Below, in pieces: positions 1,042-32,024 of a stretch of 34,131 nucleotides of DNA. The stretch is from IMG/VR virus record IMGVR_UViG_3300043450_000456, positions 1-34,131 of that record, one strand, 5' to 3'. Below the pieces are notes generated by a model, which did no database searches, was not told the DNA's origin, and saw only the letters and a list, made by a program, of their open reading frames with translations. Each line of letters begins with the position of its first letter. Positions within the stretch are counted from its first letter, which is position 1. This DNA is from a virus. The translations under genes were made by a program, and so were the position numbers.

Positions 1042-3113
1042 GCAGCGCCGACATCGCCGCCACCAGCGAGATGGACCATCTCGACCAGCTCGGGGCCAAA
1101 GCCTTCGATGGCTTTCTGGTCCGCAAGGACCTGGTGCGCAAATACTCCCGGCAATACCCGGTGCCCACCTACGTGGTGGAATTCCTGCTGGGCCGCTACT
1201 GCGCCAGCACCGATCCAGCAGAGATAGAAGAAGGTCTGCAGATCGTTGAGAAGCAGCTCCAGGGTCGCACCGTGCGCACTGGAGAAGAGGAGCTGTTCAA
1301 GGCCCGCTCCCGTGATCAAGGCAGCGTCAAGATCATCGATATCGTGCGGGCCCGGCTCGACACCCGCAGCGATTCCTATGCGGCAGAAGTGCCCAGCCTG
1401 GCCATCAAGGATGCCCAGATCGATGACGAACTGGTGCGCGCCAACGAGCGCATGCTTACCGATGGCTTCTACGCCGAGGTGACGCTCGAATACGACCCGG
1501 TGATTGCCCAGGAGCGCAACGGCCGGCCGTTCCGCATCGCCGGGCTGCGGCCAATCCAGATGTCCAACCCCAACGTGTTGGGGATATTGGCCAAGGGCCG
1601 AGCTGCTTTCACCACAGACGAGTGGCGCGACTTCCTGATCCGCTCGATCGGCATTGAGCCAACCGCCCTTGATGAGCGGGCCAAGATGGTGGTGCTGCTG
1701 CGCATGGCTCCCTTTGTGGAGCGCAACTTCAACCTGGTGGAGCTGGGCCCACGCGGCACAGGCAAGAGCCACCTGTTCCAGCAGATCTCGCCCTACTCCC
1801 ACTTGATCTCAGGCGGTAAGGCCACCGTCGCCAAGATGTTCGTCAACAACGGGAGCGGCCAGCGCGGCCTGGTCTGCCAATACGACGTGGTCTGCTTCGA
1901 CGAGGTGGCCGGCGTGTCCTTCGATCAGAAGGACGGCGTCAACATCCTCAAGGGCTACATGGCCTCCGGCGAGTTCAGCCGCGGCAAGGAGAGCATCCGC
2001 GCCGAGGGCGGGATCGTGATGGTGGGCAACTTCGATGTCGATGTGGAGCAGCAGCAACGCATCGGCCACCTGCTCAGCCCCCTGCCGCGTGAGATGCGCG
2101 ACGACACGGCCTTCCAAGACCGCATCCACGCCTACGCGCCGGGCTGGGATTTCCCCAAGCTCAACCCCAACGAACACCTCAGCAGCCACTTCGGCCTGGT
2201 GAGCGACTTCCTCAGCGAATGCTGGAGCCGCCTGCGCGATGGCAGCCGCTTGGCGGCGATGCAGAACCGCATCCACCTCGGTGGCGCCCTCAGCGGCCGC
2301 GACATCGAGGGTGTCAACAAGACCGTGAGCGCCCTGATCAAGCTGCTGTTCCCCGATCCAGAGATGGAGATCCCGGACGAGGATCTCGAATGGATCGTGC
2401 GCCTGGCGCTGGAATCACGCCGCCGCGTCAAGGAGCAGCAGAAGCGCTGCCTCAAGAGCGAGTTCCGCAACACCCACTTCAGCTACACCCTCGGCCTCGA
2501 TGGGGTTGAGAAGTTCGTGGCCACCCCCGAGCTCCACAGCGACGACGCCATTGACGGCGATCCACTGCCGCCTGGCCAGGTGTGGGCCATCAGCCCCGGC
2601 ACCGGTGAAACCGGCCCCAGCCTCTACCGAATCGAGGTGGCCGTAGGGCCCGGCAGTGGGGTCAAGATCCTCAACCAGCCCGTGCCCCCTGCTTTCCGCG
2701 AGAGCACCAAGGTGGGCGAGCAAAACCTCTACTCGCGGGCGAAGAGCCTTGTCGGTGACCGCGACCCGCGCGGCCATGAGTACTCCATCCAGCTGCGCGC
2801 CATGGACAACGACCGCAGCGGCGCTGGCCTGGGTCTACCGGTGATGATCGCCCTGGTTGGTGGCTTGCTTGATCGCAACACCCGCGGAGGCACCATCATC
2901 ATTGGCTCTCTAAATCTGGGTGGCTCGGTGGAGATGATTCCCAATGCCATCGCCATAGCCGAACTGGCAGTAGAGAAGCAGGCCAAAGTGCTGCTGATGC
3001 CCGTTTCGGCCCGTAGGGCACTCAACGATCTACCTGATGACCTGTGGACCAAGATCTCGATGGAGTTCTATAAGGATCCAGAGGATGCGGTGTTTAAGGG
3101 ATTGGAGGAATAG
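1038..3113 (+). CDS. brxL: BrxL, Lon-like AAA+ BREX protein
   Basis: This 691-residue protein has the usual BrxL length and architecture. It carries an AAA+ ATPase core with a Walker A motif GPRGTGKSH (about residues 238-246) and a Walker B motif VVCFDEVAG (about 284-292). A C-terminal Lon-protease-like domain contains DRSGAGLGLP around residue 594 and GSLNLGGSVEMIPN around 628. The Lon Ser/Lys dyad looks incomplete: a Ser sits in SGAG, but the position of the Lon lysine (GGLKEK in Lon) reads GGSVEM. BrxL is the terminal effector-type ATPase of BREX type 1 and 4 operons and is thought to act on DNA. The start overlaps the pglZ stop (ATGA). The gene ends the operon; a 44 bp AT-rich gap follows. 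Confidence 0.93.
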   Translation: MSSADIAATSEMDHLDQLGAKAFDGFLVRKDLVRKYSRQYPVPTYVVEFLLGRYCASTDPAEIEEGLQIVEKQLQGRTVRTGEEELFKARSRDQGSVKIIDIVRARLDTRSDSYAAEVPSLAIKDAQIDDELVRANERMLTDGFYAEVTLEYDPVIAQERNGRPFRIAGLRPIQMSNPNVLGILAKGRAAFTTDEWRDFLIRSIGIEPTALDERAKMVVLLRMAPFVERNFNLVELGPRGTGKSHLFQQISPYSHLISGGKATVAKMFVNNGSGQRGLVCQYDVVCFDEVAGVSFDQKDGVNILKGYMASGEFSRGKESIRAEGGIVMVGNFDVDVEQQQRIGHLLSPLPREMRDDTAFQDRIHAYAPGWDFPKLNPNEHLSSHFGLVSDFLSECWSRLRDGSRLAAMQNRIHLGGALSGRDIEGVNKTVSALIKLLFPDPEMEIPDEDLEWIVRLALESRRRVKEQQKRCLKSEFRNTHFSYTLGLDGVEKFVATPELHSDDAIDGDPLPPGQVWAISPGTGETGPSLYRIEVAVGPGSGVKILNQPVPPAFRESTKVGEQNLYSRAKSLVGDRDPRGHEYSIQLRAMDNDRSGAGLGLPVMIALVGGLLDRNTRGGTIIIGSLNLGGSVEMIPNAIAIAELAVEKQAKVLLMPVSARRALNDLPDDLWTKISMEFYKDPEDAVFKGLEE

Positions 3114-3157
3114 ACATATTGCTATCCCTATTTGTCCTTGACTGTTATGAATGAACT

Positions 3158-4174
3158 ATGAACTCCATTCAGGCCCACTCGGACGACCTTGGATTTGACA
3201 GCGAAGGTATTCACTTAATGGCCTCCATTAAATACTGGGCGTTGCTGGACGAGGCAAGCAAGAGCGTGTCATTCAGCAGGCTTCGCAAGCATTTCATGAA
3301 TGATCAGAGCAAAGACCGCGAAAGACAGGCTTACGGCAATAGAAAATATGAATGGATTCAGCAGTGGTACGAGCTAGCCGCCAAGCTGCTTGGCCTTGGG
3401 CCAGTACTGCCAGAAGATCAACTAAAATCCAAAGTCTGTGAGTCCAAATTTACTGAATTAAAGAAGTCCGCAATCTGCGTGGAGCTTGCCACGTTCTCAT
3501 CCTATTACTTGACAGGTGAGAACAAGGAGGGCGAAAGCCTTTCCTTCGACGATGATGACAGAAAGCTTTATCTTAATTATTGTGCGGGCATCATGGATGA
3601 AAGCCCAGCAACACTCTGGCTAGCCTGGAAGGAATTTAATAACTGCATTGAAAAGATTGTTAAAGCCAATAGTGGCCAGAATTACACCTGGGCCTTTGTT
3701 GGTGTAGGTGTCGCAGCGTTGGCGGTATTTGCCCTACCAATTGCTGGCGTAATTGGTGGTGTTATGGGTCTTAGTGGAGCTGCGGCTAGTTCAGCAGGTC
3801 TTGCGCTTCTTGGAGGTGGATCACTTGCGGCTGGGGGCCTGGGCATGACAGGTGGGTACATTATTCTTGTAGCCGGTGGTGCGATAATTTCTTACGGAAC
3901 AGGCTCAATGCAGCATCAACAGAAGCTCCGAGAAATCAGCAAGGAGGATTTATTGATTAACTGCGGGAAGCTATTTGCTGCCGCCAAAGTTTTTGATCTT
4001 TATGGGGAACAAACTGGCAACATCTGCAAACAAGCCCTACGCCTACAGACAGATCTAGAAGCCGATGCCGACAACGCTTTCCTTGGTGGCAACAAAGAAA
4101 TTGGACAAGCAATGGAAGCTAAGTCCCAGGTTATGCGTTCATTTCGAAGACTGCTAAGGGGTGACCTTCAGTAG
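3158..4174 (+). CDS. Unknown protein with a long glycine-rich membrane segment
   Basis: Not recognised as a known family. The 338-residue protein has a polar, helical N-terminal half rich in Lys and Glu. A hydrophobic stretch rich in Gly, Ala and Val follows at about residues 173-250, including GGVMGLSG and LLGGGSLAAGGLGMTGG, long enough for two or three membrane passes. The tail is an amphipathic helical region. The layout resembles membrane-inserting effectors, but that is inference. It follows brxL in the same direction after 44 bp and is followed after 35 bp by a small coiled-coil gene, so the two probably form one unit. The DNA is clearly AT-richer than the BREX genes, which suggests separate acquisition. 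No strong ribosome-binding site is visible before the ATG. Confidence 0.8.
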   Translation: MNSIQAHSDDLGFDSEGIHLMASIKYWALLDEASKSVSFSRLRKHFMNDQSKDRERQAYGNRKYEWIQQWYELAAKLLGLGPVLPEDQLKSKVCESKFTELKKSAICVELATFSSYYLTGENKEGESLSFDDDDRKLYLNYCAGIMDESPATLWLAWKEFNNCIEKIVKANSGQNYTWAFVGVGVAALAVFALPIAGVIGGVMGLSGAAASSAGLALLGGGSLAAGGLGMTGGYIILVAGGAIISYGTGSMQHQQKLREISKEDLLINCGKLFAAAKVFDLYGEQTGNICKQALRLQTDLEADADNAFLGGNKEIGQAMEAKSQVMRSFRRLLRGDLQ

Positions 4175-4209
4175 GATCTTCATCACCAACCTCTTTGCTC
4201 CAGAAACCA

Positions 4210-4662
4210 ATGTTAAACAAGTTTTGGTCGTTATTCCTTAAAACTCTTTGGCCGGCACTATGGCCCATCATTAGAGAGACGGTTGTTGAGATTACGCAAG
4301 ATCTTTTTACACGCCTGAGGGAACTAATTTCAGAACGATTTACTAAGACGACCTCAGATCAAGAAAAACAGGCAGAGCAGAGGGCGGTTGACGCCGAAGA
4401 AAAGTCACGAGAGGCATCTAGCGACAACGAGCGGATCCAGGCCGAAGCAGAGGCCAAGGCCTGGAGAGAAGTCGCCCAGCAACTGAAGGCCGACAATGCC
4501 ACTTTGAAGCAGGAGCTTGAGGAAGCTATCCGTCTATCTCAAGTTTATGCGCGTAAGCGGATTGATTCTGAGGCTGAACGAGACAAAGCTCAGGAGCGGA
4601 TTATGAGCCTTAAGCCGCCTTCCGAGGCAGGAAGGCTGCCAACAGCAGAAAACCAAGACTAA
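4210..4662 (+). CDS. Small protein with amphipathic N-terminus and coiled coil
   Basis: Unrecognised protein of 150 residues from ATG 4210; a TTG at 4195 would add five. The first ~35 residues are hydrophobic or amphipathic (WSLFLKTLWPALWPIIRETV), fit for membrane association. Residues ~55-135 are dense in Glu, Lys, Ala and Gln with heptad-like spacing, a likely coiled coil. The C-terminus is a short polar tail. The gene is 35 bp downstream of the glycine-rich membrane protein, on the same strand and with similar AT-rich composition, so a two-component membrane complex is plausible. No catalytic motif is visible. It could be a partner, anchor or antidote of the upstream protein, but the sequence does not say which. 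Confidence 0.72.
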   Translation: MLNKFWSLFLKTLWPALWPIIRETVVEITQDLFTRLRELISERFTKTTSDQEKQAEQRAVDAEEKSREASSDNERIQAEAEAKAWREVAQQLKADNATLKQELEEAIRLSQVYARKRIDSEAERDKAQERIMSLKPPSEAGRLPTAENQD

Positions 4663-4892
4663 CCATAGACCTGGAAAAGTACTTTCGCCAATTTCTTTTA
4701 GTGCCAATCCAGATATCTACTCACCCCAAAGAGCATTCTTTCTTTGGCTCCAACAATATGTCCGCCTTGATATTAACATTGCCGCCTACAGGCTACTGAT
4801 CACGGTGATGTATATACACTTGCCCACGCTGCTCTCTAGTCTTATTCAAAATCTCTCCCTCAGACCACTTCACTGTTGGAGGAGCTAAAGAG

Positions 4893-5195
4893 ATGATCTT
4901 CCCCTGCTTCAAGTTTGCACAACTCGCCATTCGCCCCAACTGGTACGACAACCTCGGCGACGCCATGGACGAGGAGGCTCGCGTCGCATCCATGCGCACC
5001 TCTGCCGGCTGGGAAGCCGGCGAGGGCGGCTGGTCCTCCCCCGACGGCATCCACGAAACCGACTGGGCAGACGAAGGCTGGCCCTTCCCAGAGGACGCCG
5101 ACTTCGCCACCTGGTTCAGCGCCGCCCACCACAACGAGGCCCCGGGCGCTGGAGTCAACCCCATCCCCTACCCCAATGCTCCTTCCAGCGCCTAA
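4893..5195 (+). CDS. Small acidic Trp-rich protein, unknown function
   Basis: A 100-residue protein preceded by a good Shine-Dalgarno sequence (TTGGAGGAG, about 10 bases before the ATG) and a TATATA element further upstream near 4810. The product is acidic and rich in Trp and Gly (WEAGEGGW, DWADEGWPF, DADFATWF). It has no membrane segment or recognisable domain. GC content returns here to the high level of the surrounding genome, so it may not belong to the AT-rich pair before it. The overlapping +1 frame reads as a Pro/Thr-rich shadow. Its role is unknown; it could be host-derived or a part of the mobile element. Confidence 0.6.
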   Translation: MIFPCFKFAQLAIRPNWYDNLGDAMDEEARVASMRTSAGWEAGEGGWSSPDGIHETDWADEGWPFPEDADFATWFSAAHHNEAPGAGVNPIPYPNAPSSA

Positions 5196-8630: not shown

Positions 8631-9251
8631 TCAGAGCAGGGCATCACCCAGCTCCAGGGCAGCGAGGTCCGCTGCAGCCGTGTCGTTGGCCTGGGCTTCC
8701 AACGCCGTGGCCTGCTCAATCAGCTCCGCCTTGGTCTGGCTGCTATCGAGGTCCACGCCATGGACAGCCGAGCAGTAGTCGACGATCTGGGCCTTGGTCA
8801 TCGCCTGGAAGTCGGTGACCTCGGCTGCCAGCAGGGCGTCCCCGCTGCCAGCTCCGCCAGTGGCGGTTTCAGTAGGGGGCTCCAGTTCAGTGGTAGCGGC
8901 CGCCTCCCGCTCCAGGGCTGGTTCGAGAACAGGTTCGGGCTCTGGTTCGCCATCCGGGCCTGCTCCCTGATCGGGCTCTGGTTGTTCCGGCTCGGGTTCC
9001 GATGACGGCGGCTCCGTGTGCAGCTGCCAGCCCAATGCCTGCCAGCCAGCCAAATGAACCGGCCAGATCGAGCGGCTTTCGCCGTCCTTACTGATCAGCA
9101 GCTGGCTCGGCGGCAGCAGGGATTCATCACCCACCCCCGGATCCGGGGTGACGGTGAGCCGCTGCTCCGGTCCGTCCAGCGGCACCGGGGTGGAGGCGGG
9201 GTTGTTGCTATCAAGAGGCTGCAACAGTTGCAAGGGCATTGCGGTGTCCAT
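8631..9251 (-). CDS. Structural-operon protein with HeH/LEM-like C-terminal domain
   Basis: ATG 9251 is preferred because GAGGTGA lies six bases upstream; the product is 206 residues. The N-terminal part has short beta-like stretches (QRLTVTP, SQLLISKDGESRSIWP, WQALGWQLHT). A Pro/Glu-rich low-complexity linker covers about residues 84-128. The C-terminal ~35 residues (MTKAQIVDYCSAVHGVDLDS, then SQTKAELIEQA) match the helix-extended-helix fold of HeH/LEM and Rho-N-like domains found at the ends of phage virion proteins, where they may touch DNA. It sits two genes downstream of the capsid gene. A head-completion or neck role is a guess. Confidence 0.68.
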   Translation of the reverse strand: MDTAMPLQLLQPLDSNNPASTPVPLDGPEQRLTVTPDPGVGDESLLPPSQLLISKDGESRSIWPVHLAGWQALGWQLHTEPPSSEPEPEQPEPDQGAGPDGEPEPEPVLEPALEREAAATTELEPPTETATGGAGSGDALLAAEVTDFQAMTKAQIVDYCSAVHGVDLDSSQTKAELIEQATALEAQANDTAAADLAALELGDALL

Positions 9252-22053: not shown

Positions 22054-22403
22054 TGGCTGCTGCTTGTGGTCTCAGCTCTTGCCAGAAGCCGTGGTTGATC
22101 GCGCGCAAAGCCATGCAGAATCTGCATTGTTTGGTCGGGCCCTAGGGCAAGCGGGTCGATCAAGCCGCGGGGTTGAGTTCTTATCTGGATCCGTACGTGA
22201 GCCAGGCGTGATGAGGACTTTGCCTCGGACTAACTGCGACGCGGTGGGTTTCGACTTCAACTTGATCTGACTTCGGGTTTTTATGCGGACCAGAAAAAGT
22301 CGTACCATTTCCTAGTGAGATTTCGCCCAAATAGCGTTAGATTGATGGAGCGAGTCTCGCGGTTAGAATTTTTAGTGCTTGCCTGGCGCCACCGTATTTC
22401 GCA
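22054..22403. promoter_or_regulatory. Divergent promoter region between portal and DUF262 gene
   Basis: These 350 bp lie between two divergent genes. The right third is AT-rich. A perfect 15-bp palindrome with arms ATGCAGA/TCTGCAT lies at 22113-22127 and could be an operator. GTTAGA occurs twice, at 22336-22341 and 22362-22367, the same hexamer that is clustered at 27329-27620. No small gene is supported here. Confidence 0.45.
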
Positions 22404-24107
22404 ATGGAATTAATCGCAGAGACAAGATCAGTCAATCAAATACTTTCGCCAAATAAAAGATATATTGTGCCTCGGTTTCAACGAGAGTACTCCTGGAAAG
22501 AAGAGGAGATTGATGAGTTCTGGGATGATATAGTTCAACAAATTAGAATACAAGATGGGCGCTTGGTCCCATCTGAATATTTCATTGGTTGCATTGTTCT
22601 CGTGGGCGAAGAATCAAAGGCTTCCTATCAAATTGTTGATGGCCAGCAGCGTCTAACCACATTAACGGTTCTTCTGAGGTGCATAATCTCACGCCTTAAA
22701 GAGTTGAATGATGACGCGGCGGCTAATGCGCTTTATGCCAATGTAATTGAAGGCACCGACAACGATGGGAACCGATACTTCAAGTTAATCAATGAGACAC
22801 CGAAGCCTTTCTTTCAAAATGAGCTTCAGTCAATTGTGCCTCAGCACCTTAGCAAGCCCAAGACAATAGAGGAGAGACTTCTCCAGAACGCTAACACTAG
22901 ATTCAAAAAGAAGATTGAGTCGTACAAGCCCAAAAGCTTTTCAGACCTTGATGCTGTCAAGGCAATAAGAGAGCAGGTGCTCAATAATCTAAAGGTTATT
23001 CTGGTAACCGCCAAAGACGAGGACGACGCGTATACCATCTTCGAAACATTAAATGCTCGTGGCATTAGCCTCACTTCGGTTGATCTTATTAAGAACTGGA
23101 TATTCAAGAACTACAGCGATAAGCATCCACACGATAACGCAAAAGATGTCTGGGGTCAGATAAGAAACGATATAGCAAGGTTTTCTGACCTGGAAACGTT
23201 CTTCCGGCACTATTGGAATTCAAAGTACGCATTCGCATCTAACGACAGGCTCTACAAGAGCTTCAAGGATCAATTGCGCCGAGGACGCATTTCTTGCGCA
23301 CGTGATTTTCTGCTTGAAATAAAGTCTGCATCAAGTCGCTATCAAAAGATAGGACAACCAAGTGATACTGATTGGCCGGTACAAAAAGAAAAAGGGATAG
23401 CAAGATCTTTAGCGCTTATCAATCAGTACCGCGTCACTCAAGTTCGCCCCTTTTTGCTTGCACTACTAGAGGCACGCGAAAACAAGGTCATTGGTCAGAC
23501 AGAAATGATTGCTATTGTGCAAAATATTGAGACATTCCATTTCCTTTTTAGTAGCTTATGCCAGGAGCGTGCATCTGGACTGGAAGGCACTTACACGCGG
23601 GCCGCAAAACAAATCTACGCTGCTGGAGGTGATAAGGCAAAAGGACTTGCTGTTGTCAAGGCTTTGAATAATTCTCTCACAAAGAAGAAACCTAGCCAGC
23701 AGAAGATTAACTCTGCATTGCTTGGATTGTCATTTTCAGAGGGTAATGATTCAAATAAAAAGCTGATCCAAACGGCTTACCGAAAGATCGAGCACCACTT
23801 GCTGAAAACGACCGAGCTTATTTCTGGGAGCTTCTCCATTGAGCATATCAGCGACCAGTCTGCTGGCCAAGCCTGGATGCATAAGATTGGCAATCTTCTC
23901 CCTTTAGATGAGTCTATAAATAACAGAATTAAAGCGGGGCTCTCTTTTGAGCAAAAAAAGGTGCATTATGCAAAATCAAAGTTCAAGATTGTTCAATATT
24001 TTCTTTCGTGCAATCCTCAGGCGATATGGGAAGAGGATGACTCAAAACGCTGGTTTTCAGAAGTCAGCACCCTGCTCGTTGATTCAACTGCGCTTAAGCG
24101 AATATAA
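22404..24107 (+). CDS. DUF262/DUF1524 GmrSD-like nuclease
   Basis: A 567-residue protein. The N-terminal DUF262 domain shows VPRFQREYSW at residues 22-31 and IVDGQQRLTT around 77-86, the ParB-like nucleotide-binding core. The C-terminal DUF1524 region has the HNH-type motif EHISDQSAGQAW near residue 480 followed by KIGNLLPLDESINNRI. Fused proteins of this build act as modification-dependent restriction enzymes of the GmrSD type or as related anti-phage nucleases. The gene is much AT-richer than its neighbours and lies on the opposite strand, between the sigma factor and portal genes, so it was probably acquired as a moron. Which modification it senses cannot be told. Confidence 0.87.
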   Translation: MELIAETRSVNQILSPNKRYIVPRFQREYSWKEEEIDEFWDDIVQQIRIQDGRLVPSEYFIGCIVLVGEESKASYQIVDGQQRLTTLTVLLRCIISRLKELNDDAAANALYANVIEGTDNDGNRYFKLINETPKPFFQNELQSIVPQHLSKPKTIEERLLQNANTRFKKKIESYKPKSFSDLDAVKAIREQVLNNLKVILVTAKDEDDAYTIFETLNARGISLTSVDLIKNWIFKNYSDKHPHDNAKDVWGQIRNDIARFSDLETFFRHYWNSKYAFASNDRLYKSFKDQLRRGRISCARDFLLEIKSASSRYQKIGQPSDTDWPVQKEKGIARSLALINQYRVTQVRPFLLALLEARENKVIGQTEMIAIVQNIETFHFLFSSLCQERASGLEGTYTRAAKQIYAAGGDKAKGLAVVKALNNSLTKKKPSQQKINSALLGLSFSEGNDSNKKLIQTAYRKIEHHLLKTTELISGSFSIEHISDQSAGQAWMHKIGNLLPLDESINNRIKAGLSFEQKKVHYAKSKFKIVQYFLSCNPQAIWEEDDSKRWFSEVSTLLVDSTALKRI

Positions 24108-24919: not shown

Positions 24920-26578
24920 TCACCTGCTCATCAGCAGTGGCGTCACCACCGGCTGGATGCCCTGGGCCTTCCAGTAGCGGCCCTCCAGCCAGAGGGCGCC
25001 GTGACAGAAGGCATCCACCAGGTCCTTGCTGCCCTTGGGGAAACGGATCGCTTCCTCCACCAGCGGCTGGGCACGGTGGTGGAAACGAATTTGACCTGCT
25101 TCCACCAGGGGAGCGACGGCATGGGCGCGGGTTTCCTTGCTGCCTCTCGCGGTGATCGGCAGCATCCCCGGTACGCGTCGCCGGAGGGTTTGCAGCACGG
25201 CAGGACCGTTGGCGGCGTCCTCGATCAGCACGGCGTTGGGACGCAGGCCCTGCTGCTCCAGCGCCTGCAGGCAGCCCAGCAAAAAGCGAATCACATCCGG
25301 GAGGCCAAAGCGGTGCCGGGCAGCCCAGAGCACCTCCATCTCCAAGGCAGTGATTTGAGGCGGACCCTCGTGTTCGCCTGTGCGCGGGTTGAGCGGTCTC
25401 GGTGGTGGTGCCAGCAGACCCGCCAGGCAGAAGCCGCAGTAGTCGCTCTCTGCCTCCCCCTTGAAGGACAAGTCGCAGGAAAGCGCCAGCAGGGCGTACT
25501 GGCGCTGACGGCCAGTGGTCGCTCCTGTCGCCTCGCGGGGAAAGGGCGGCCGGATCCAGTTGCGCAGAAAGATTGATCCAGACGCTGGGCTGGGCCGCTG
25601 CTGATACAGCGCTGCCCACCAGTAAGCACCGAGGCGGGCGCGGATTTTGACCAGCTCGCTCAGCGGGAAGCGCTCCGGGCACAGCGCCTCTCCCGGTTGG
25701 CGCCAGTCCGGGATCAAGGTGCAGGTGGGCGGCAGCTTGGGGCGTTCAGCCCGCTCTTCTGCAACTGCGGGTAGGTCGAGCACGGTCCACTGCTGGGGGG
25801 CCTCGCCCAGCTCCTGCTCGTAAAGCCAGCCGATCACGTCTTGGTGGTCCCAGCGGGTGAGCACCACCACCTGGGCTGAGAGGTTCGGCTGCTCGTTGCC
25901 GTCTGGGCCCAGCACCATGGCCGGTTCAGCCCGGGTGAGCCACACCGAGCGCAGCCAGTCGATCAGCTTCTGCCGCAGCGCCGGGGATGCGGCATCACCT
26001 GGTCCCTTGTAGGGGTCGTCGATGATCCCCAGGCTGTAGCCCTTGCCGGTAAAGGGGCCATCCACACCAGCAGCAATGCAGCCACCGCGCTGGCGAGTAA
26101 GCCAGTTGCCCACCGCAGCTGAGTCGCGGGCCAGCAGGTGGCCGGTCACCCGGTAGAAGTGGCGCGCTTCTCTGGAGTGGGCGTAAGCCAGTTCGGCTGA
26201 GTACGAGGCGATTGCCGCAAATAGATGCGGGTAGCGCTGCAGGAAGTAGGCCGGGAACAACTTGGAGACCAGCAGCGACTTTCCCAGCCGCGGCGGACAG
26301 GTAACGATCAGCCGGCTGAGCTGGCCATCGGCCACCTGCTGGAGCAGCTCGATCAGCACGTCAGCCCAGCGGTGGAAGCCGTAGCGGGGGTAGGCCTCGG
26401 CGATAAAGCTGCGCAGGCTCTGGGGTTCCGCCTGGATTGGGGTGGTGGTTGTGGGCAGGTGCAGTAGGCCGGCGTCACCCCAGGGGTCGAGCTGGCTCAG
26501 CAGCAGACCGCCTTCTGCAGGGGCCTGTTGCGTGAGCACCGGTGCTGGCATCACGGTGGCGGCGGTGCTCACGGTCAT
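24920..26578 (-). CDS. terL: Large terminase subunit
   Basis: A 552-residue packaging motor. The ATPase domain has Walker A-like CPPRLGKS at 94-101 and Walker B LGIIDDPY at ~183-190. The SQVVVLTRWDHQDVIGWL-type segment that follows is typical of this TerL branch. The RNase H-like nuclease domain shows ALSCDLSFKG around 367, IEDAANG further on and the closing DLVDAFCHG. The start overlaps the small subunit stop as ATGA. TerL cuts and pumps DNA through the portal. All catalytic motifs look intact, so packaging could still be functional. Confidence 0.92.
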   Translation of the reverse strand: MTVSTAATVMPAPVLTQQAPAEGGLLLSQLDPWGDAGLLHLPTTTTPIQAEPQSLRSFIAEAYPRYGFHRWADVLIELLQQVADGQLSRLIVTCPPRLGKSLLVSKLFPAYFLQRYPHLFAAIASYSAELAYAHSREARHFYRVTGHLLARDSAAVGNWLTRQRGGCIAAGVDGPFTGKGYSLGIIDDPYKGPGDAASPALRQKLIDWLRSVWLTRAEPAMVLGPDGNEQPNLSAQVVVLTRWDHQDVIGWLYEQELGEAPQQWTVLDLPAVAEERAERPKLPPTCTLIPDWRQPGEALCPERFPLSELVKIRARLGAYWWAALYQQRPSPASGSIFLRNWIRPPFPREATGATTGRQRQYALLALSCDLSFKGEAESDYCGFCLAGLLAPPPRPLNPRTGEHEGPPQITALEMEVLWAARHRFGLPDVIRFLLGCLQALEQQGLRPNAVLIEDAANGPAVLQTLRRRVPGMLPITARGSKETRAHAVAPLVEAGQIRFHHRAQPLVEEAIRFPKGSKDLVDAFCHGALWLEGRYWKAQGIQPVVTPLLMSR

Positions 26579-27129
26579 GCCCTCGGCTCCGGTGGCTTGA
26601 TCGGTGCCCGCAGCAGGCCGCCGATTTCAGCGATCACCCGGAAGGCACCCACGGCTGCCGAAAACTGCTCGGAATCCATGGCCCGGCGGGCGCACTCATT
26701 GAGCGCAAAGATCTGCTCGGCCTGATGGCGCCGGCGGTCGGTGATCAGCTCCTCCACCATCCGCTCGCGGGCGAGGTTGAGGTAGCGGTTCACCGTCTGG
26801 CTGTTGCGGACCCCCCATTTCTCACCAGCATTTTCGAGGATCTGCACCAGCGGCAGTCGCTGAGCGATCCAAAGCTGGGCCTCCGCGATGCGTCGCTCGA
26901 TCTCCAGTCGGCTGGGTCTAGGGACTGGGATTGCCCCACGCTTCTGCCGCGGTGGATTGCCCTTGCCTACGGGGCGGCTGGGGTCAACGCCCACCGTCTC
27001 GCCCAAGGGCAGGCCGTCGGCGTCCTCTGCCAAAGCAGCAGTGCGCAGGGCTTCTATGGGATCGAGCTGGCGAGCCTCCAGCAGCGCAAGAGCACTGGGA
27101 TCAGCAGCGGGAGGGTGTCCGGCAGCCAC
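26575..27129 (-). CDS. terS: Small terminase subunit
   Basis: A GTG at 27129 preceded by AGGTG gives 184 residues; the frame extends to an ATG at 27219 but that leader is Cys/Arg-rich and unlikely. The protein has a helical middle (PSRLEIERRIAEAQLWIAQR, then WGVRNSQTVNRYLNLARERM), which fits a DNA-binding helix-turn-helix, and a helical C-terminal oligomerisation region. The stop overlaps the terL start (ATGA), the usual terS-terL arrangement. TerS recognises the packaging site; a cluster of repeated motifs lies 200-490 bp upstream. Confidence 0.8.
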   Translation of the reverse strand: MAAGHPPAADPSALALLEARQLDPIEALRTAALAEDADGLPLGETVGVDPSRPVGKGNPPRQKRGAIPVPRPSRLEIERRIAEAQLWIAQRLPLVQILENAGEKWGVRNSQTVNRYLNLARERMVEELITDRRRHQAEQIFALNECARRAMDSEQFSAAVGAFRVIAEIGGLLRAPIKPPEPRA

Positions 27130-27328
27130 GCGTAAACAACACCTGCAGAGGAAAAAGCAATGCCAACGCGAATGAGAGGCGGTGTATTTGCGTTCCCGAA
27201 AGCATAGCCGCGTTGCCAAGGGTTGCTCCCTGCCGCCGTGAGTCGCGCTACCGGTGCCGAGCGAGCCCGCTCCTGCCTGTCCACTCCAGGGCTGCTGGCT
27301 GCTGCTGCTGCTGGCCTGCCCGGGCCCG

Positions 27329-27620
27329 TCTAACAGGCCGGAGGGGTTCTAACAGCGTTCTAACAGCTGCTGTTAGACCTCAGATCCACTGCGCAGCAGC
27401 AGCTCTGGGGTGCTCTCCTCTTCTTTCTAACCTTCTAACAGAAAGAGATAGATACACAAGCAAAGAGGGGGAGGCAGGGGGTCTCTCCTGGATCAGGGGG
27501 GTGCACTGGGGTGTGTAAAGAGAGAGTCCCTACCCCCTGTAGGAGTGTTAGAACGTTAGATACCAGTCACTGCAAGGGGTTTCGCCCTAACAGCCCAGTT
27601 AGAGAACGGGCCCATCTAAC
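27329..27620. promoter_or_regulatory. TTCTAACAG iteron-like cluster (origin or packaging site)
   Basis: About eleven copies of TCTAAC or its complement GTTAGA (one with C for the first T) occur in 292 bp. In direct orientation they begin at 27329, 27348, 27359, 27426, 27434, 27586 (variant) and 27615. Inverted copies lie at 27370-27377, 27546-27552, 27554-27561 and 27597-27604. Two copies form a 19-base palindrome at 27359-27377. An A-rich purine tract (27441-27470) lies in the middle. The cluster lies between the primase end and the terS start, so it may be a replication origin bound by an initiator, the terS recognition site, or the control region of the late operon. Confidence 0.65.
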
Positions 27621-30364
27621 GCTCCGGAGCCGGTGAGCATGGCCAGGGGCAGGGCCACAGCCCGCGAGCTGCCCAGGCCGCGAAAGTGCACCAGCTGCGA
27701 GCGGCTGGCGCCAGGTAGGCGGCTGAGGATGGCACCCCAATTGGCCACCCAGGCGGTATCCGCCAGCATGCGGGCAATGGCTTCTGCGCTGTTGCTGATC
27801 AGCAGCTCCCCCTCCCGCACGCGGAGGCCATGGCGGGCCAGCAGGTCGGCGGCATCAGCGGGCCGCACCGGCTCCATCGGTGAGGGCAGGGCGCTGGACA
27901 CCAGCTCCACCAGTTCCAGCACCGTGCGGGACAGCACCGAGCGCTCCTCGCTCTCCACCCGCAGCTGGTGCTGCAGGATCCGGTTGAGGCAGCGGCGCTC
28001 ATCCGGGACCTCCGTGCTTTCGCGGTAGCTGCTCCAGTCCGCGCCATCGATCAGGCTCTGCACCTCCGCCGCGCTGGGCACGCGCGAGGCCTGCAGCGAC
28101 CAGGCACCGGCTAGCAAGGTGCCGTACTGATCGCCCAGGGCCTGGGAATCGAAGTGAGCGGCCGCCACCTGGGAGCAGACGACTATCGAGCGCCGGATCA
28201 CCGGGATCAGCGCCACGGTGCGGGCGATCAACCGGTTGGCGAACTCCGGTGTGATCAGCTGCTCGAGGTCCCGGTCCAGCGCCTGCCAGTGCGCCTCCCG
28301 CTGCTGCTGGGGGAGCTCGCTGGGGTTGCGCAGGTTGAGCGGCGCAAAGCGGCGCCGGTCGGCGCCCTGCTTGAGGCCGGTGGCGATAGAGGAGAGCAGG
28401 AACATCGAGCGCACCGAGTAGCGCGCCACCTCGCCTGTAGGTGAGCCCTTGACGATCGCTGCGCGGGATTCGGAACTGGCCACCCGCGCCAGCGCGAGGA
28501 TCGCCTGAATGCGCTGCTGGTCCTCGCGCTCGTTGCTCTCCGCCTCATCGATCAGCACCGGCAGGGCATCAGAGCGCAGGGTCTGGCGGATGCCAGCTTC
28601 TGTGACGCTGCCGACGAACACCTGCGCCAGATCGGCCAGCAGCACGCCGCAGAAGCGCTCAAACAGGTGCGACTTGCCCGAGCCGGCCGGGCCGCTCAGC
28701 CAGAGGTGGGGCCGCCAGCGCAGGGCACCACAGATCGGCGCCAGCGTCAGCCATCCCGCCAGCAGCATTGCGGAAGCCGGCACCTCCCAGTGGAAGCGGT
28801 CCGCCAAGGTGAGCACCAGCAGGGCCTCCTCGTCGCTGAGCGGCTGGGCAGCCCCCGTGCCCACTAGGGCAGTGCCGCGCTGGTAATGAAAGCGGCTAGC
28901 GAGGGTGGCACTGAGTGGCCGCGGCTCACCATCCACCACCAGGCGATCGCCCAGATGCAGCACGCAGCGGCCCTCGTCCCACCAGCTGCCGCGGCCGCGC
29001 AAGCGATCGGGATCGAACATTCCCACCGCCGCCTGACGGCAGAACAGATCAGAAGCCGCGGCCGTCCAGTTCACGCCCCGCTTATTGGGGTAGAGGGTTT
29101 CCCAGTAGGCCAGGGGCGCCAGCCGGCAGAGGTTCACGCCGCCGTGGGCCGAGGAGCCCAGCCGCATCACCTGGCCGGTGGAGCGCGGTTGATAGAAGTA
29201 GCCGTCGCTGTCGTAGCCCAGGCACACGTAGGGCTCACCGCCTGAGGGGCCTGGCCGCTCAGGCGGCACTAAAAGAGAAGCGCCGCCCTGCAGCACAGGT
29301 GCCGGATCAGCGGCCGGGGCTTTCGCGTCGTCGTCGGCCTCTGACTGCGGTAGTTGCACTGTTCGGCAATGGGCCTCCAGGTAGGCCTGGGCTTCTGCCG
29401 CACTCCAGCTGGCATCGGCCAGATCCCAGCCCGCTGCGCCCGGTGCATCCACCAGGTCCCAGTCCGCCTCCGTACTGCCCGGCGGCAGCACCACCGCCAC
29501 TAGGCAGCCGAGCTCCAGCAGCACGGCCGAGAGCCGCGCCATCGCCTCACGTCCACTGGTATCGGCATCGGGCCAGAGGCTGACGGCGCGGCCGGCTAAG
29601 GGGCTCCAGTCGACGCTGCCAATGGCCTGGCTGCCGCCGCACCAGCTCACCACCACGTGATCGGGGAACAGCACTACGGCGGCATCGGCTGCCTTCTCCC
29701 CCTCGGTGATCAGCACCGGCGACCAGAAGTGGCGCTCTAACTCCGCCAACCGGTAGAGCGGCCTGGGGGCACGCCAGTCGGAGCGGAACGGATCGCGGCG
29801 GGAGGGGAAGTGCCAGCCCCCAGCCAGCCAGGTGCGCTGCACGAACACCTTGCGCTGACGGCCGCCCTGCAGCAGATCCAGTCGCTGCACCCAGAACAGG
29901 GGTGCTCCGGCCGCGTCGGTGTAGCACCACTGGCCGCTGGCGCGGCCCAGCTCCGGCGGCGGGGCAGAGGGCGGTGGGGTGTCCGGGATGCGGGTAGGTC
30001 TGCCGGCCTTGCTGCCTGAGCGGCTGTGCCTGGGGCTGGCTGGGGCTGGCCGGTGCGGGCCTGGCTGCGCCGGCAGGGCCAGGTGGGCCTGGATGCGGCG
30101 GGCAGCTGTGGCGAAGTCCCAGCCAGTAAGGCGCAGCAGCAGATCCATGCCGCTGCCACCGCCACCGCGCTGCTCGCGGCCTCCGCACTGGTTGCAGAAC
30201 CAGCCGCCCGGGCCGTCATCGCGGTCCCAGCGGTAGCGGTCGGTGCCGCCGCAGGCGGGGCAGGGCTGATGGCGGTTCTCCAGCTGCTCCGGTGCCAGAG
30301 CAGCGAGCTCGATCAGCAGCCGCGGCCACTGGCCAGCCGCAGCTGCCAGCACATCGGTGGCCAT
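27599..30364 (-). CDS. Primase-helicase replication protein
   Basis: A 921-residue replication protein. A zinc ribbon at ~35-62 (CPACGG and CNQCGG) leads a primase module. A Toprim domain follows, with LITEGEKAADAA near 218 and SLWPDADTSGREA near 265. A second half carries a P-loop ATPase with GPAGSGKSH at ~558-566 and LIDEAESNE near 603, as in phage and plasmid superfamily 3/AAA-type replicative helicases. It should unwind and prime the element's own DNA. The start overlaps the ribbon-helix-helix gene stop (TGATG). The motif cluster at its 3' end is a possible origin. Confidence 0.87.
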   Translation of the reverse strand: MATDVLAAAAGQWPRLLIELAALAPEQLENRHQPCPACGGTDRYRWDRDDGPGGWFCNQCGGREQRGGGGSGMDLLLRLTGWDFATAARRIQAHLALPAQPGPHRPAPASPRHSRSGSKAGRPTRIPDTPPPSAPPPELGRASGQWCYTDAAGAPLFWVQRLDLLQGGRQRKVFVQRTWLAGGWHFPSRRDPFRSDWRAPRPLYRLAELERHFWSPVLITEGEKAADAAVVLFPDHVVVSWCGGSQAIGSVDWSPLAGRAVSLWPDADTSGREAMARLSAVLLELGCLVAVVLPPGSTEADWDLVDAPGAAGWDLADASWSAAEAQAYLEAHCRTVQLPQSEADDDAKAPAADPAPVLQGGASLLVPPERPGPSGGEPYVCLGYDSDGYFYQPRSTGQVMRLGSSAHGGVNLCRLAPLAYWETLYPNKRGVNWTAAASDLFCRQAAVGMFDPDRLRGRGSWWDEGRCVLHLGDRLVVDGEPRPLSATLASRFHYQRGTALVGTGAAQPLSDEEALLVLTLADRFHWEVPASAMLLAGWLTLAPICGALRWRPHLWLSGPAGSGKSHLFERFCGVLLADLAQVFVGSVTEAGIRQTLRSDALPVLIDEAESNEREDQQRIQAILALARVASSESRAAIVKGSPTGEVARYSVRSMFLLSSIATGLKQGADRRRFAPLNLRNPSELPQQQREAHWQALDRDLEQLITPEFANRLIARTVALIPVIRRSIVVCSQVAAAHFDSQALGDQYGTLLAGAWSLQASRVPSAAEVQSLIDGADWSSYRESTEVPDERRCLNRILQHQLRVESEERSVLSRTVLELVELVSSALPSPMEPVRPADAADLLARHGLRVREGELLISNSAEAIARMLADTAWVANWGAILSRLPGASRSQLVHFRGLGSSRAVALPLAMLTGSGALDGPVL

Positions 30365-30629: not shown

Positions 30630-32024
30630 GTGTCCTTCCACCTGCGCCCCTATCAGCAGGAGGCCGTAGAGCGCGTGCGCCAGGCCTTCCTTTTTGGCCA
30701 TCGCGCCGTGCTCTTTGTGCTGCCGACCGGCGGCGGCAAGACCGTGGTGTTCAGCCACATCGCCAAGCAGGCCGCCGCCCGCGGCAAGCGCATCGCCGTG
30801 CTGGTGCACAGAGCTGAACTACTTGATCAGGCCTGCCGCTCCCTAGCGGCTATGGGGGTGCGCCATGGCGTGATCGCCGCCGGCCGCTCCATGAACCTGG
30901 CCGCGCCAGTGCAGGTAGCCAGCGTCCAGACCCTGGCCCGGCGCCTGGCGCAGCTGCCGGCCGATCTGTTCCAGCTGCTGGTGGTGGATGAGGCCCACCA
31001 CAGCAATGCCGGCACCTGGGCCAAGGTGATCGGCCACTTTGATCGAGCCCTGCTGCTGGGCGTCACGGCCACTCCAGTGCGAGGCGATGGCCGCGGCCTC
31101 GGCGAGTTCTATTCCGCCTTGGTGCTCGGCCCCAGCGCCGCCTGGCTCTGCGCCGAGGGCTACCTGGCGCCGGCGCGGGTGTTTGCCCCACCGCTGGGTT
31201 TCTCTGCGAAGGGCCTGCGGCGGCGGATGGGGGATTTCGACCTGAGGCAGGCCGCCGGTGAGCTGGGCGGCAGCCGCATCCTTGGCGATGCCGTCAGTCA
31301 CTACCTCAGCCACCTGAGCAGAAGCACGGCCATTGCCTTCTGCTGCTCGATCGCCCACGCGCAAGCCGTGGCGGAAACCTTCTCGGAACGGGGCGTGGCC
31401 GCGGCCTCGATCGATGGCTCGATGGACCCCCTGCAGCGGCGGCGGTTGCTTGAGCAGCTCGGCAGCGGTGAGCTGCAGGTGCTCACCAGCTGCAACCTGA
31501 TTGGTGAGGGGGTTGATGTGCCGTCGGTGGGGGGCTGCCTGCTGCTGCGGCCCACCCAGAGCCTGGCGCTGCATCTCCAGATGATCGGCCGCTGTCTGCG
31601 GCCCCAGCCGGGCAAGCAGGCGGTGATCCTCGATCACGTCGGCAATATCGAGCGTCTCGGTCACCACCTCGACGAGCAGGAGTGGAGCCTCGAGGGCGTG
31701 CGCAAGCGCAAGCAGAGCAAGGCCCCCTCCGTGAAAACCTGCCCGGAGTGCTTCTGCGCCATGGCCAGCGACGCCAGCCTCTGCCCGGAATGCGGCAAGC
31801 AGTTCCGGTCTGAAAAACGGCAGCTGGTGACGGTGGCCGGCGAGCTGAGTGAACTGAGCCAGCAGGAGCTGCGCAGAGAGCGCCGCCGCGAGCAGCGCCA
31901 GGCCCGCACCGCGGCTGAACTGGAAGCGCTGGGAAGCCAGCGCGGCATGAAAAACCCCAAGGGCTGGGCGCGGCATGTGATCGCCAGCCGCCAGGCGCGC
32001 GGCCAGTGGGAGCTGCTGGCATGA
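30630..32024 (+). CDS. SF2 DEAH-type helicase with zinc ribbon
   Basis: A GTG start at 30630 gives 464 residues. Superfamily 2 motifs are complete: PTGGGKT at 32-38 (motif I), DEAH at 120-123 (II), TATP at 146-149 (III), GEGVDVPSV (V) and QMIGRCLRP near 313 (VI). A zinc ribbon CPECFCAM...CPECGKQF lies at ~370-390, followed by a charged helical tail. It is RadD/phage-type in build and should remodel DNA during replication or recombination. It is coupled by ATGA to a VRR-NUC nuclease and diverges from the replication operon. Confidence 0.88.
   Translation: MSFHLRPYQQEAVERVRQAFLFGHRAVLFVLPTGGGKTVVFSHIAKQAAARGKRIAVLVHRAELLDQACRSLAAMGVRHGVIAAGRSMNLAAPVQVASVQTLARRLAQLPADLFQLLVVDEAHHSNAGTWAKVIGHFDRALLLGVTATPVRGDGRGLGEFYSALVLGPSAAWLCAEGYLAPARVFAPPLGFSAKGLRRRMGDFDLRQAAGELGGSRILGDAVSHYLSHLSRSTAIAFCCSIAHAQAVAETFSERGVAAASIDGSMDPLQRRRLLEQLGSGELQVLTSCNLIGEGVDVPSVGGCLLLRPTQSLALHLQMIGRCLRPQPGKQAVILDHVGNIERLGHHLDEQEWSLEGVRKRKQSKAPSVKTCPECFCAMASDASLCPECGKQFRSEKRQLVTVAGELSELSQQELRRERRREQRQARTAAELEALGSQRGMKNPKGWARHVIASRQARGQWELLA

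What the first reader, a model, noticed from the sequence alone, without database searches (positions are those of the whole stretch)
27329..27620. Cluster of about eleven TTCTAACAG motifs between primase and terS
TCTAAC or GTTAGA appears eleven times in 292 bp of a GC-rich genome where it should be rare, including a 19-base palindrome, and an A-rich tract lies inside. The position fits a replication origin (next to the primase-helicase) and equally a terS recognition site. One site could serve both. The primase stop codon overlaps one copy.
Basis: partly seen in the sequence, partly recalled or inferred. Interest (0 to 1): 0.7.

Follow-up and report, generated by a model that had tools for sequence, protein, structure and literature searches.

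The report
Phage replication origin with swappable specificity
The repeated TCTAAC words are the docking sites of a replication origin that sits directly behind the gene of the cyanophage protein that starts DNA copying; in some 180 related phages the repeat letters change in step with a few residues at that protein's tip, which suggests that phages change their origin lock and protein key together.

Summary
The cluster is real: 10 exact TCTAAC/GTTAGA copies (an 11th has one mismatch) lie in 292 bp, the densest 6-mer cluster in the window. It is best explained as an iteron origin recognised by the C-terminal winged domain of the adjacent primase-helicase. In 171 of 171 testable relatives, including isolated phage S-H1, repeats flank the least stable 60 bp directly 3' of the primase gene, whatever gene comes next. 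The repeat word differs (CG-NNN-[G/C]-[A/G]), and its letters follow residues of one beta hairpin at the protein's C-terminus: R893 with C at position 6 (70/70 reduced rows), H/W/Y893 with G (36/40), K891 with G at position 3 (11/11). Eight of eight independent tree contrasts agree (p = 0.008). In two phage pairs the last 100-120 codons plus the repeats were exchanged between otherwise similar DNA. The rule also held in a VapE family not used to find it. TerS recognition is not supported: the same TerS occurs with different words, and the cluster occurs without that TerS. The layout is that of PICI/SaPI origins, but this is a full phage. New are the family, the apparent code and the cassette exchange. 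Binding and replication are untested.

The parts
27599..30364 (-). Primase-helicase gene (921 aa): Zn-ribbon, TOPRIM-like region, AAA+ helicase, C-terminal winged domain; proposed origin-binding initiator
   Evidence: Pfam Zn_Ribbon_Prim 1.8e-12, phrog_35358 DNA primase 8e-128; AF2 model of aa 379-921, pLDDT 90, aligns over nearly its whole length with SCCmec Cch helicase 5dgk, Z 14.9
27602..28033 (-). C-terminal domain, aa 778-921, proposed iteron-binding domain
   Evidence: AF2 pLDDT 89.9; best VIA match is the SaPIbov1 Rep C-terminal domain, 8tch 452-556, Z 4.9 (weak)
27647..27706 (-). Last beta hairpin (wing), aa 887-906; specificity residues 890, 891, 893 (codon 893 at 27686-27688, His)
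   Evidence: Top covarying columns for iteron positions 3, 5, 6 and 7 out of the whole ~540-aa alignment; 8/8 independent contrasts for position 6
27329..27439 (.). Right iteron group (terS side): TCTAAC at 27329, 27348, 27359, 27426, 27434 (+) and GTTAGA at 27372; includes the 19-nt palindrome 27359-27377
27547..27620 (.). Left iteron group (primase side): GTTAGA at 27547, 27555, 27598 and TCTAAC at 27615, plus degenerate CCTAAC 27586-27591; overlaps the 3' end of the primase gene
27414..27473 (.). Least stable 60 bp of the region, candidate DNA unwinding element
   Evidence: nearest-neighbour stability, 99.1st percentile of the window; iterons on both sides here and in 171/171 relatives
27552..27589 (.). 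Degenerate copy of a second conserved cis-element (palindrome, consensus about AGATCCCTTGCGSCGCAAGGGATCT)
   Evidence: PWM hits in both orientations
27375..27412 (.). Second copy of the same palindromic element, other side of the AT-rich tract
   Evidence: PWM hits in both orientations
26575..27219 (-). Putative terS (named by position before terL; weak family match only; start codon uncertain). Neighbour, not the proposed reader of the repeats
24920..26578 (-). Terminase large subunit (neighbour; shows that the element is a phage, not a satellite)
   Evidence: phrog_38 7e-74, Terminase_6C

Best explanation
The cluster is an iteron-type replication origin. The primase-helicase encoded immediately upstream binds the GTTAGA words through its C-terminal winged domain; the hairpin residues 890-893 read the variable bases. 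Oppositely oriented iteron groups, with innermost pairs 8-9 bp apart, flank an easily melted tract and would load two AAA+ hexamers there, which unwind and prime bidirectional replication. Shown here: position, layout, conservation, covariation and joint exchange of wing and repeats. Inferred: binding, melting, hexamer loading, and that replication starts here.
For: (1) Clusters directly 3' of the primase gene in essentially all 20 first relatives and in nearly all of 196 distinct loci, including isolated phage S-H1. (2) Iterons on both sides of the least stable 60 bp in 171/171; innermost left iteron '-' in 143/173, innermost right '+' in 157/173, innermost spacing mostly 8-9 bp. (3) Column scan of the 181-row alignment: the best column for iteron positions 3, 5, 6, 7 is residue 891, 890, 893, 893. 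R893-C6 99/100, H/W/Y893-G6 74/81, W893-G7 38/38, Y893-A7 21/21, K891-G3 12/12. (4) Tree without the wing: 11 changes of position 6; 8 independent pairs all agree, p 0.0078; K891/G3 5/5. (5) Cassette exchange: L074/L086 and L208/L235 are similar outside but diverged from about -300/-360 to +300 around the primase stop; L012/L016 share the left breakpoint. (6) Outside the training family: L386 and L411 (28-31% identity) have YF with GTTAGA; VapE-type proteins have HF/YF with GTTAGA and RF/RY/KF with GTTACA or GTAACA. (7) Fold: whole model like Cch (Z 14.9), C-terminal domain nearest SaPIbov1 Rep. (8) Known precedents: SaPI Rep and Cch2 bind downstream iterons through the C-terminal domain (PMC7581432); PICI origins lie 3' of rep with two iteron sets flanking an AT-rich region (PMC6092414).
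Against: No binding, replication or origin-mapping data. Exceptions: L100 has H893 with GTTAC/GTAAC; five H893 loci have T at position 6; in L102 only the half of the cluster next to the primase fits its Y893; RF VapE loci L596 and L625 show no clear cluster. Position 4 has no clear determinant. The C-terminal fold match alone is weak (Z 4.9). Many sequences are related, so raw counts overstate independence.
Confidence: 0.92

Rival explanations
1. The cluster is the TerS recognition (pac/cos) site, alone or in addition to being an origin.
For: In the window it lies just upstream of putative terS, and L015 and L239 have another type of TerS gene next to it.
Against: Same TerS with different words (L017, L021-L023); the word is shared by L014/L015 whose TerS differs or is absent; in L034, L058, L107 and S-H1 a DNA polymerase clamp gene follows, in L005, L008 and L060 a tail gene, with TerS of another family 1.8 kb away in L008. 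The word follows the primase wing.
Confidence: 0.03
2. The cluster is a partition or operator site for a ribbon-helix-helix protein.
For: An RHH (NikA-like) gene directly follows the cluster in 47 of 174 loci, and RHH proteins often bind short tandem repeats (own knowledge).
Against: 127 of 174 loci, the window among them, have no such gene there; L074 and L086 keep 91-100% identical downstream DNA including the RHH region while the word changes from CGTAAGA to CGTAACA. RHH could still bind the conserved palindrome.
Confidence: 0.02
3. The repeats are a copy-control or autoregulation site bound by the primase (like the crr element of P4), and the origin is elsewhere.
For: Iterons commonly serve control as well as initiation (own knowledge); covariation shows who binds, not what for.
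Against: The layout flanks melting-prone DNA in 171/171; no second cluster occurs in the window; in characterised PICIs this layout is the origin (PMC6092414).
Confidence: 0.04

Closest known systems
SaPI / PICI rep-ori modules (SaPIbov1 Rep, SaPI5 PriRep, EcCICFT073)
   [quoted passage not shown]).
   Different: The host element is a full phage with terL, portal and capsid genes; Zn-ribbon/TOPRIM primase fused to the helicase, phrog_35358; a conserved palindrome lies inside the origin; the authors of PMC6092414 knew this layout from no other bacterial replicon in 2018.
SCCmec Cch / Cch2 self-loading helicases
   Same: Predicted fold similar over almost the whole length (5dgk Z 14.9); C-terminal domain of Cch2 binds direct repeats just downstream of its gene (PMC7581432).
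   Different: No sequence match to DUF927 or HTH_56 in this protein; many more iterons, and on both sides of the tract.
Phage P4 alpha protein and its ori/crr
   Same: Primase-helicase fusion with a C-terminal winged-helix domain binding repeats at the origin (reviewed in PMC4234260).
   Different: No second (crr-like) cluster in the window; origin here directly follows the gene.
VapE-type (PF05272) phage primase-helicases
   Same: Iteron cluster directly 3' of the gene in L428, L525, L548, L566, L572, L588, L621, L629 and the same residue-base relation at the wing.
   Different: Different domain family; not detected as a relative of the window protein by tblastn at 1e-10.

Membership tests
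PICI/SaPI-type rep-ori module | Origin region immediately 3' of the initiator gene | tested here: met
PICI/SaPI-type rep-ori module | Two iteron sets flanking an AT-rich (melting) region | tested here: met
   171/171 loci, window 27414-27473
PICI/SaPI-type rep-ori module | AAA+ initiator helicase with C-terminal DNA-binding domain of Rep/Cch type | tested here: inconclusive
   Whole model vs Cch Z 14.9 but C-terminal domain alone vs SaPIbov1 Rep only Z 4.9; no Pfam match to the domain
PICI/SaPI-type rep-ori module | Initiator binds the iterons; module drives autonomous replication | not testable with these tools
   Covariation is indirect
PICI (as an element) | Satellite without its own full set of capsid and packaging genes | tested here: not met
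   TerL, portal, major head protein and scaffold in the window
P4 alpha-type replicon | Second iteron cluster (crr) besides ori | tested here: not met
   One cluster only; elsewhere 5 scattered hexamers, two of them 26 bp apart at 22336/22362
TerS pac/cos recognition site | Sequence follows the TerS type | tested here: not met
   Same TerS, different words; cluster without that TerS
RHH partition site | RHH gene linked to the repeats | tested here: not met
   47/174 loci, none found in the window

The most novel reading that the evidence does not exclude
A portable recognition code: one or two residues of a C-terminal wing set the iteron bases in unrelated families of phage initiator helicases (basic residue with C, His/Tyr/Trp with G at position 6), and phages change their replication specificity group by exchanging a ~600-900 bp cassette of wing plus origin, presumably to escape origin competition, incompatibility or origin-stealing parasites.
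Probability: 0.55. Interest if true: 0.85.

Novelty: new variant of a known kind. Interest (0 to 1): 0.74.

Why it matters
It gives a sequence-only way to find the origin in a large group of cyanophages and to predict which initiator fires which origin. It offers several natural single-module swaps and a testable residue-to-base rule, so initiator-origin specificity, a long-standing question for iteron replicons, becomes open to direct mutagenesis. The joint exchange suggests selection for changing the replication group, a form of phage-phage or phage-satellite competition that has not been charted for cyanophages in the papers I could search.

Tried and rejected
Distant relatives of the primase in Bordetella, Pseudomonas and Serratia phages (L025-L028) show no such cluster next to the gene, so the layout is not universal for phrog_35358-like proteins. 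TerS and RHH readings: see rivals. The palindrome was checked as a host-wide repeat: at up to 3 mismatches it hits only 2 of 4 records, at 3 places in all, one of them (G002:C81) apparently the L019 cluster itself. Foldseek alone gave no significant match for the isolated C-terminal domain; a missing match is not evidence of a new fold. Sequence search of PDB with the profile found only chance P-loop matches. Words of L109 and L203 were judged miscalled and left out of the tree test; in the raw table they are the H>A and R>A cells. Position 4 of the iteron: no residue explains it well, and T/A there is partly a matter of strand choice for near-palindromic CGTWACG words. In VapE loci only 12 matched my simple C-terminal pattern. 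One hit (L600) is not a wing and was not counted.

Full report
What the window is. The window is an IMG/VR virus record of 34131 bp. It carries TerL, portal, major head, scaffold, a sigma factor, a weak tyrosine-integrase match and a GmrSD gene. Its closest relatives are Synechococcus-type genomes (GFB01 and several lake MAGs), freshwater virus contigs and the isolated Synechococcus phage S-H1. It is therefore a phage or prophage of picocyanobacteria, not a satellite.

The observation. Ten exact TCTAAC/GTTAGA copies lie in 27329-27620, against 3.57 expected in the whole window. No other 6-mer is as dense in any 292-bp stretch. The 19-nt palindrome (27359-27377) and the overlap with the primase stop codon are as described. 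The count is ten, with an eleventh at one mismatch.

Position is conserved, the word is not. Twenty relatives found with the primase showed repeat clusters at the same place, directly 3' of the primase gene, but with different words: TTAG, TAAG, TAAC, TTAC, GGAC, GAAC, TCCC and TTCC as cores of a frame CG-NNNN-A. Four more scans brought the set to 316 loci, 196 of them distinct. The clusters were found again by an unsupervised count of enriched 6-mers in the 600 bp after the stop codon. A few loci had too short a downstream stretch or no callable word.

Layout. In 171 of 171 loci with enough sequence, iterons lie on both sides of the least stable 60 bp. The innermost left iteron points away on the minus strand in 143 of 173 and the innermost right one on the plus strand in 157 of 173; innermost pairs are mostly 8 or 9 bp apart; the right arm reads ++-+++ in 57 loci, the window included. 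[quoted passage not shown]

The cluster goes with the primase, not with TerS. TerS and TerL like the window's are found next to the cluster only in the closest relatives, and there the words differ (L017, L021-L023). Elsewhere the next gene is a DNA polymerase clamp (L034, L058, L107, S-H1), a tail gene (L005, L008, L060), or a TerS of another family, in L008 and L010 at a distance. An RHH gene follows in 47 of 174.

Covariation with the protein. I aligned 181 primase C-terminal halves with callable words and asked, over all columns, which residue best predicts each iteron position. The best columns were residue 891 for position 3 (Lys always with G, 12/12), 890 for position 5, 893 for position 6 (Arg with C 99 of 100; His/Trp/Tyr with G 74 of 81) and 893 again for position 7 (Trp with G 38/38, Tyr with A 21/21). 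No strong predictor was found for position 4. In the AlphaFold model (mean pLDDT 90.3 and 89.9) these residues sit on one strand of the last beta hairpin, aa 887-906. Because the sequences are related I built a tree from the alignment without the wing: on 107 reduced rows with G or C at position 6 there are 11 changes; eight independent pairs on supported branches all agree with residue 893 (p = 0.0078), and five of five for K891 with G3. The table for reduced rows is R-C 70, H-G 13, W-G 13, Y-G 10, H-T 3, H-C 1. Two rows that I judged miscalled were left out there.

Exchange of wing and origin together. L074 and L086 are 90-100% identical at DNA level up to 300 bp before the primase stop, drop to 38-70% between -300 and +300, and return to 91-100%. 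Within that stretch lie the last ~100 codons and the iterons; Y893 with CGTAAGA is replaced by R893 with CGTAACA. L208 and L235 show the same from -360 to +300 (similar outside, though less so), L012 and L016 the same left boundary. L237 and L243 differ by R893H and by C to G at position 6 at about 80-90% DNA identity, though other residues differ too.

Test outside the family. Scanning the virus collection for a double GTTAGA word and a triple GTTACA word gave clusters 3' of other initiator genes. L386 and L411 (28-31% identical to the window protein) end in a YF wing and have GTTAGA. In VapE-type proteins (PF05272), H/Y at the corresponding place goes with GTTAGA (L428 and its identical copy L564, L566, L629) and R/K with GTTACA or GTAACA (L525, L548, L572, L588, L621); L596 and L625 have RF without a clear cluster. 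L562, a relative of the L386 kind by its LRRLP motif, has Arg and GTTACA (alignment by eye). The first scans fixed the word, not the residue, so the residue is the free variable there. This is a small but independent confirmation. Clusters also follow a DUF927 + HTH_56 (Cch-type) gene (L325) and a RecA-like protein with a MarR-type winged helix (L404), whose wings I could not align.

Structure. The AAA+ half resembles MCM, D5/E5, PriRep1 and NrS-1 helicases, and over nearly the whole length SCCmec Cch, Z 14.9. The C-terminal domain alone matches best the C-terminal domain of SaPIbov1 Rep (Z 4.9), with Cch and other winged-helix DNA-binding domains below it; these Z values are low and only suggestive. 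For SaPI Rep and Cch2 the C-terminal domain is known to bind downstream iterons (PMC7581432).

Mechanism, with status. Recognition of iterons by the wing: supported by covariation and joint exchange, not by binding data. Melting of the tract at 27414-27473 and loading of two hexamers in opposite directions: inferred from layout and from PICI/SaPI precedents. Self-priming through the Zn-ribbon/TOPRIM part: inferred from domains. Reason for diversity (avoiding competition, incompatibility or origin theft): speculation.

Second element. A palindrome near AGATCCCTTGCGSCGCAAGGGATCT occurs inside the origins irrespective of the word: 384 of 459 PWM hits (both orientations counted) lie in the 8% of sequence that is the 600 bp after the stop, in 132 loci. 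Its function is open.

Limits. The loci are metagenome contigs for the most part, some duplicated across samples; E-values and counts are not independent except where the tree test was used. The literature search covers only the open library, and ten searches; no earlier report of the residue-base relation or of these cyanophage origins was found, which does not prove that there is none.

Noticed in passing
window 27375-27412 and 27552-27589; many loci, e.g. L086 +25 and +186 after the primase stop: Conserved ~25-bp palindrome (about AGATCCCTTGCGSCGCAAGGGATCT), often two copies ~160 bp apart flanking the AT-rich tract, independent of the iteron word; further copies 1.0-2.4 kb downstream in some phages. 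Possible hairpin, priming or host-factor site.
   Followed up: partly
L102 4587-5000: Chimeric origin: the half next to the primase has GTGAGA words (fit its Y893), the other half GTTACA words; recombinant or assembly chimera.
   Followed up: partly
L100 wing VVHFKGAGAKSRATRLPL: The one clear exception to the 893 rule with G/C: His with GTTAC/GTAAC words. Five other H893 loci (L110-L113 group) read CGTAAT.
   Followed up: partly
L024 (S-H1) 8729-9094, L058 4817-5185, L102 4953-5258: A NikA/CopG-like ribbon-helix-helix gene directly follows the origin in 47 of 174 loci; might bind the palindrome or act in control or partition.
   Followed up: partly
L404 6321-6578; L325 4375-4642: GTTAGA clusters also directly follow a RecA-like ATPase with a MarR-type winged helix (L404) and a DUF927 + HTH_56 protein (L325): convergent use of the same word by unrelated initiators.
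   Followed up: partly
window 22404-24107 (+) and 22336, 22362: GmrSD-type restriction gene in a low-GC island (43-47% GC within a ~66% GC genome), likely a recent acquisition; two GTTAGA hexamers 26 bp apart lie just upstream of it.
   Followed up: no
window 3001-5000: Second low-GC stretch (48-49% GC) with an unidentified 338-aa ORF at 3158-4174.
   Followed up: no
window 30630-32024 (+): DEAD/ResIII helicase gene on the + strand, divergent from the primase; the overlapping minus-strand ORF 30843-31976 has no family match.
   Followed up: no
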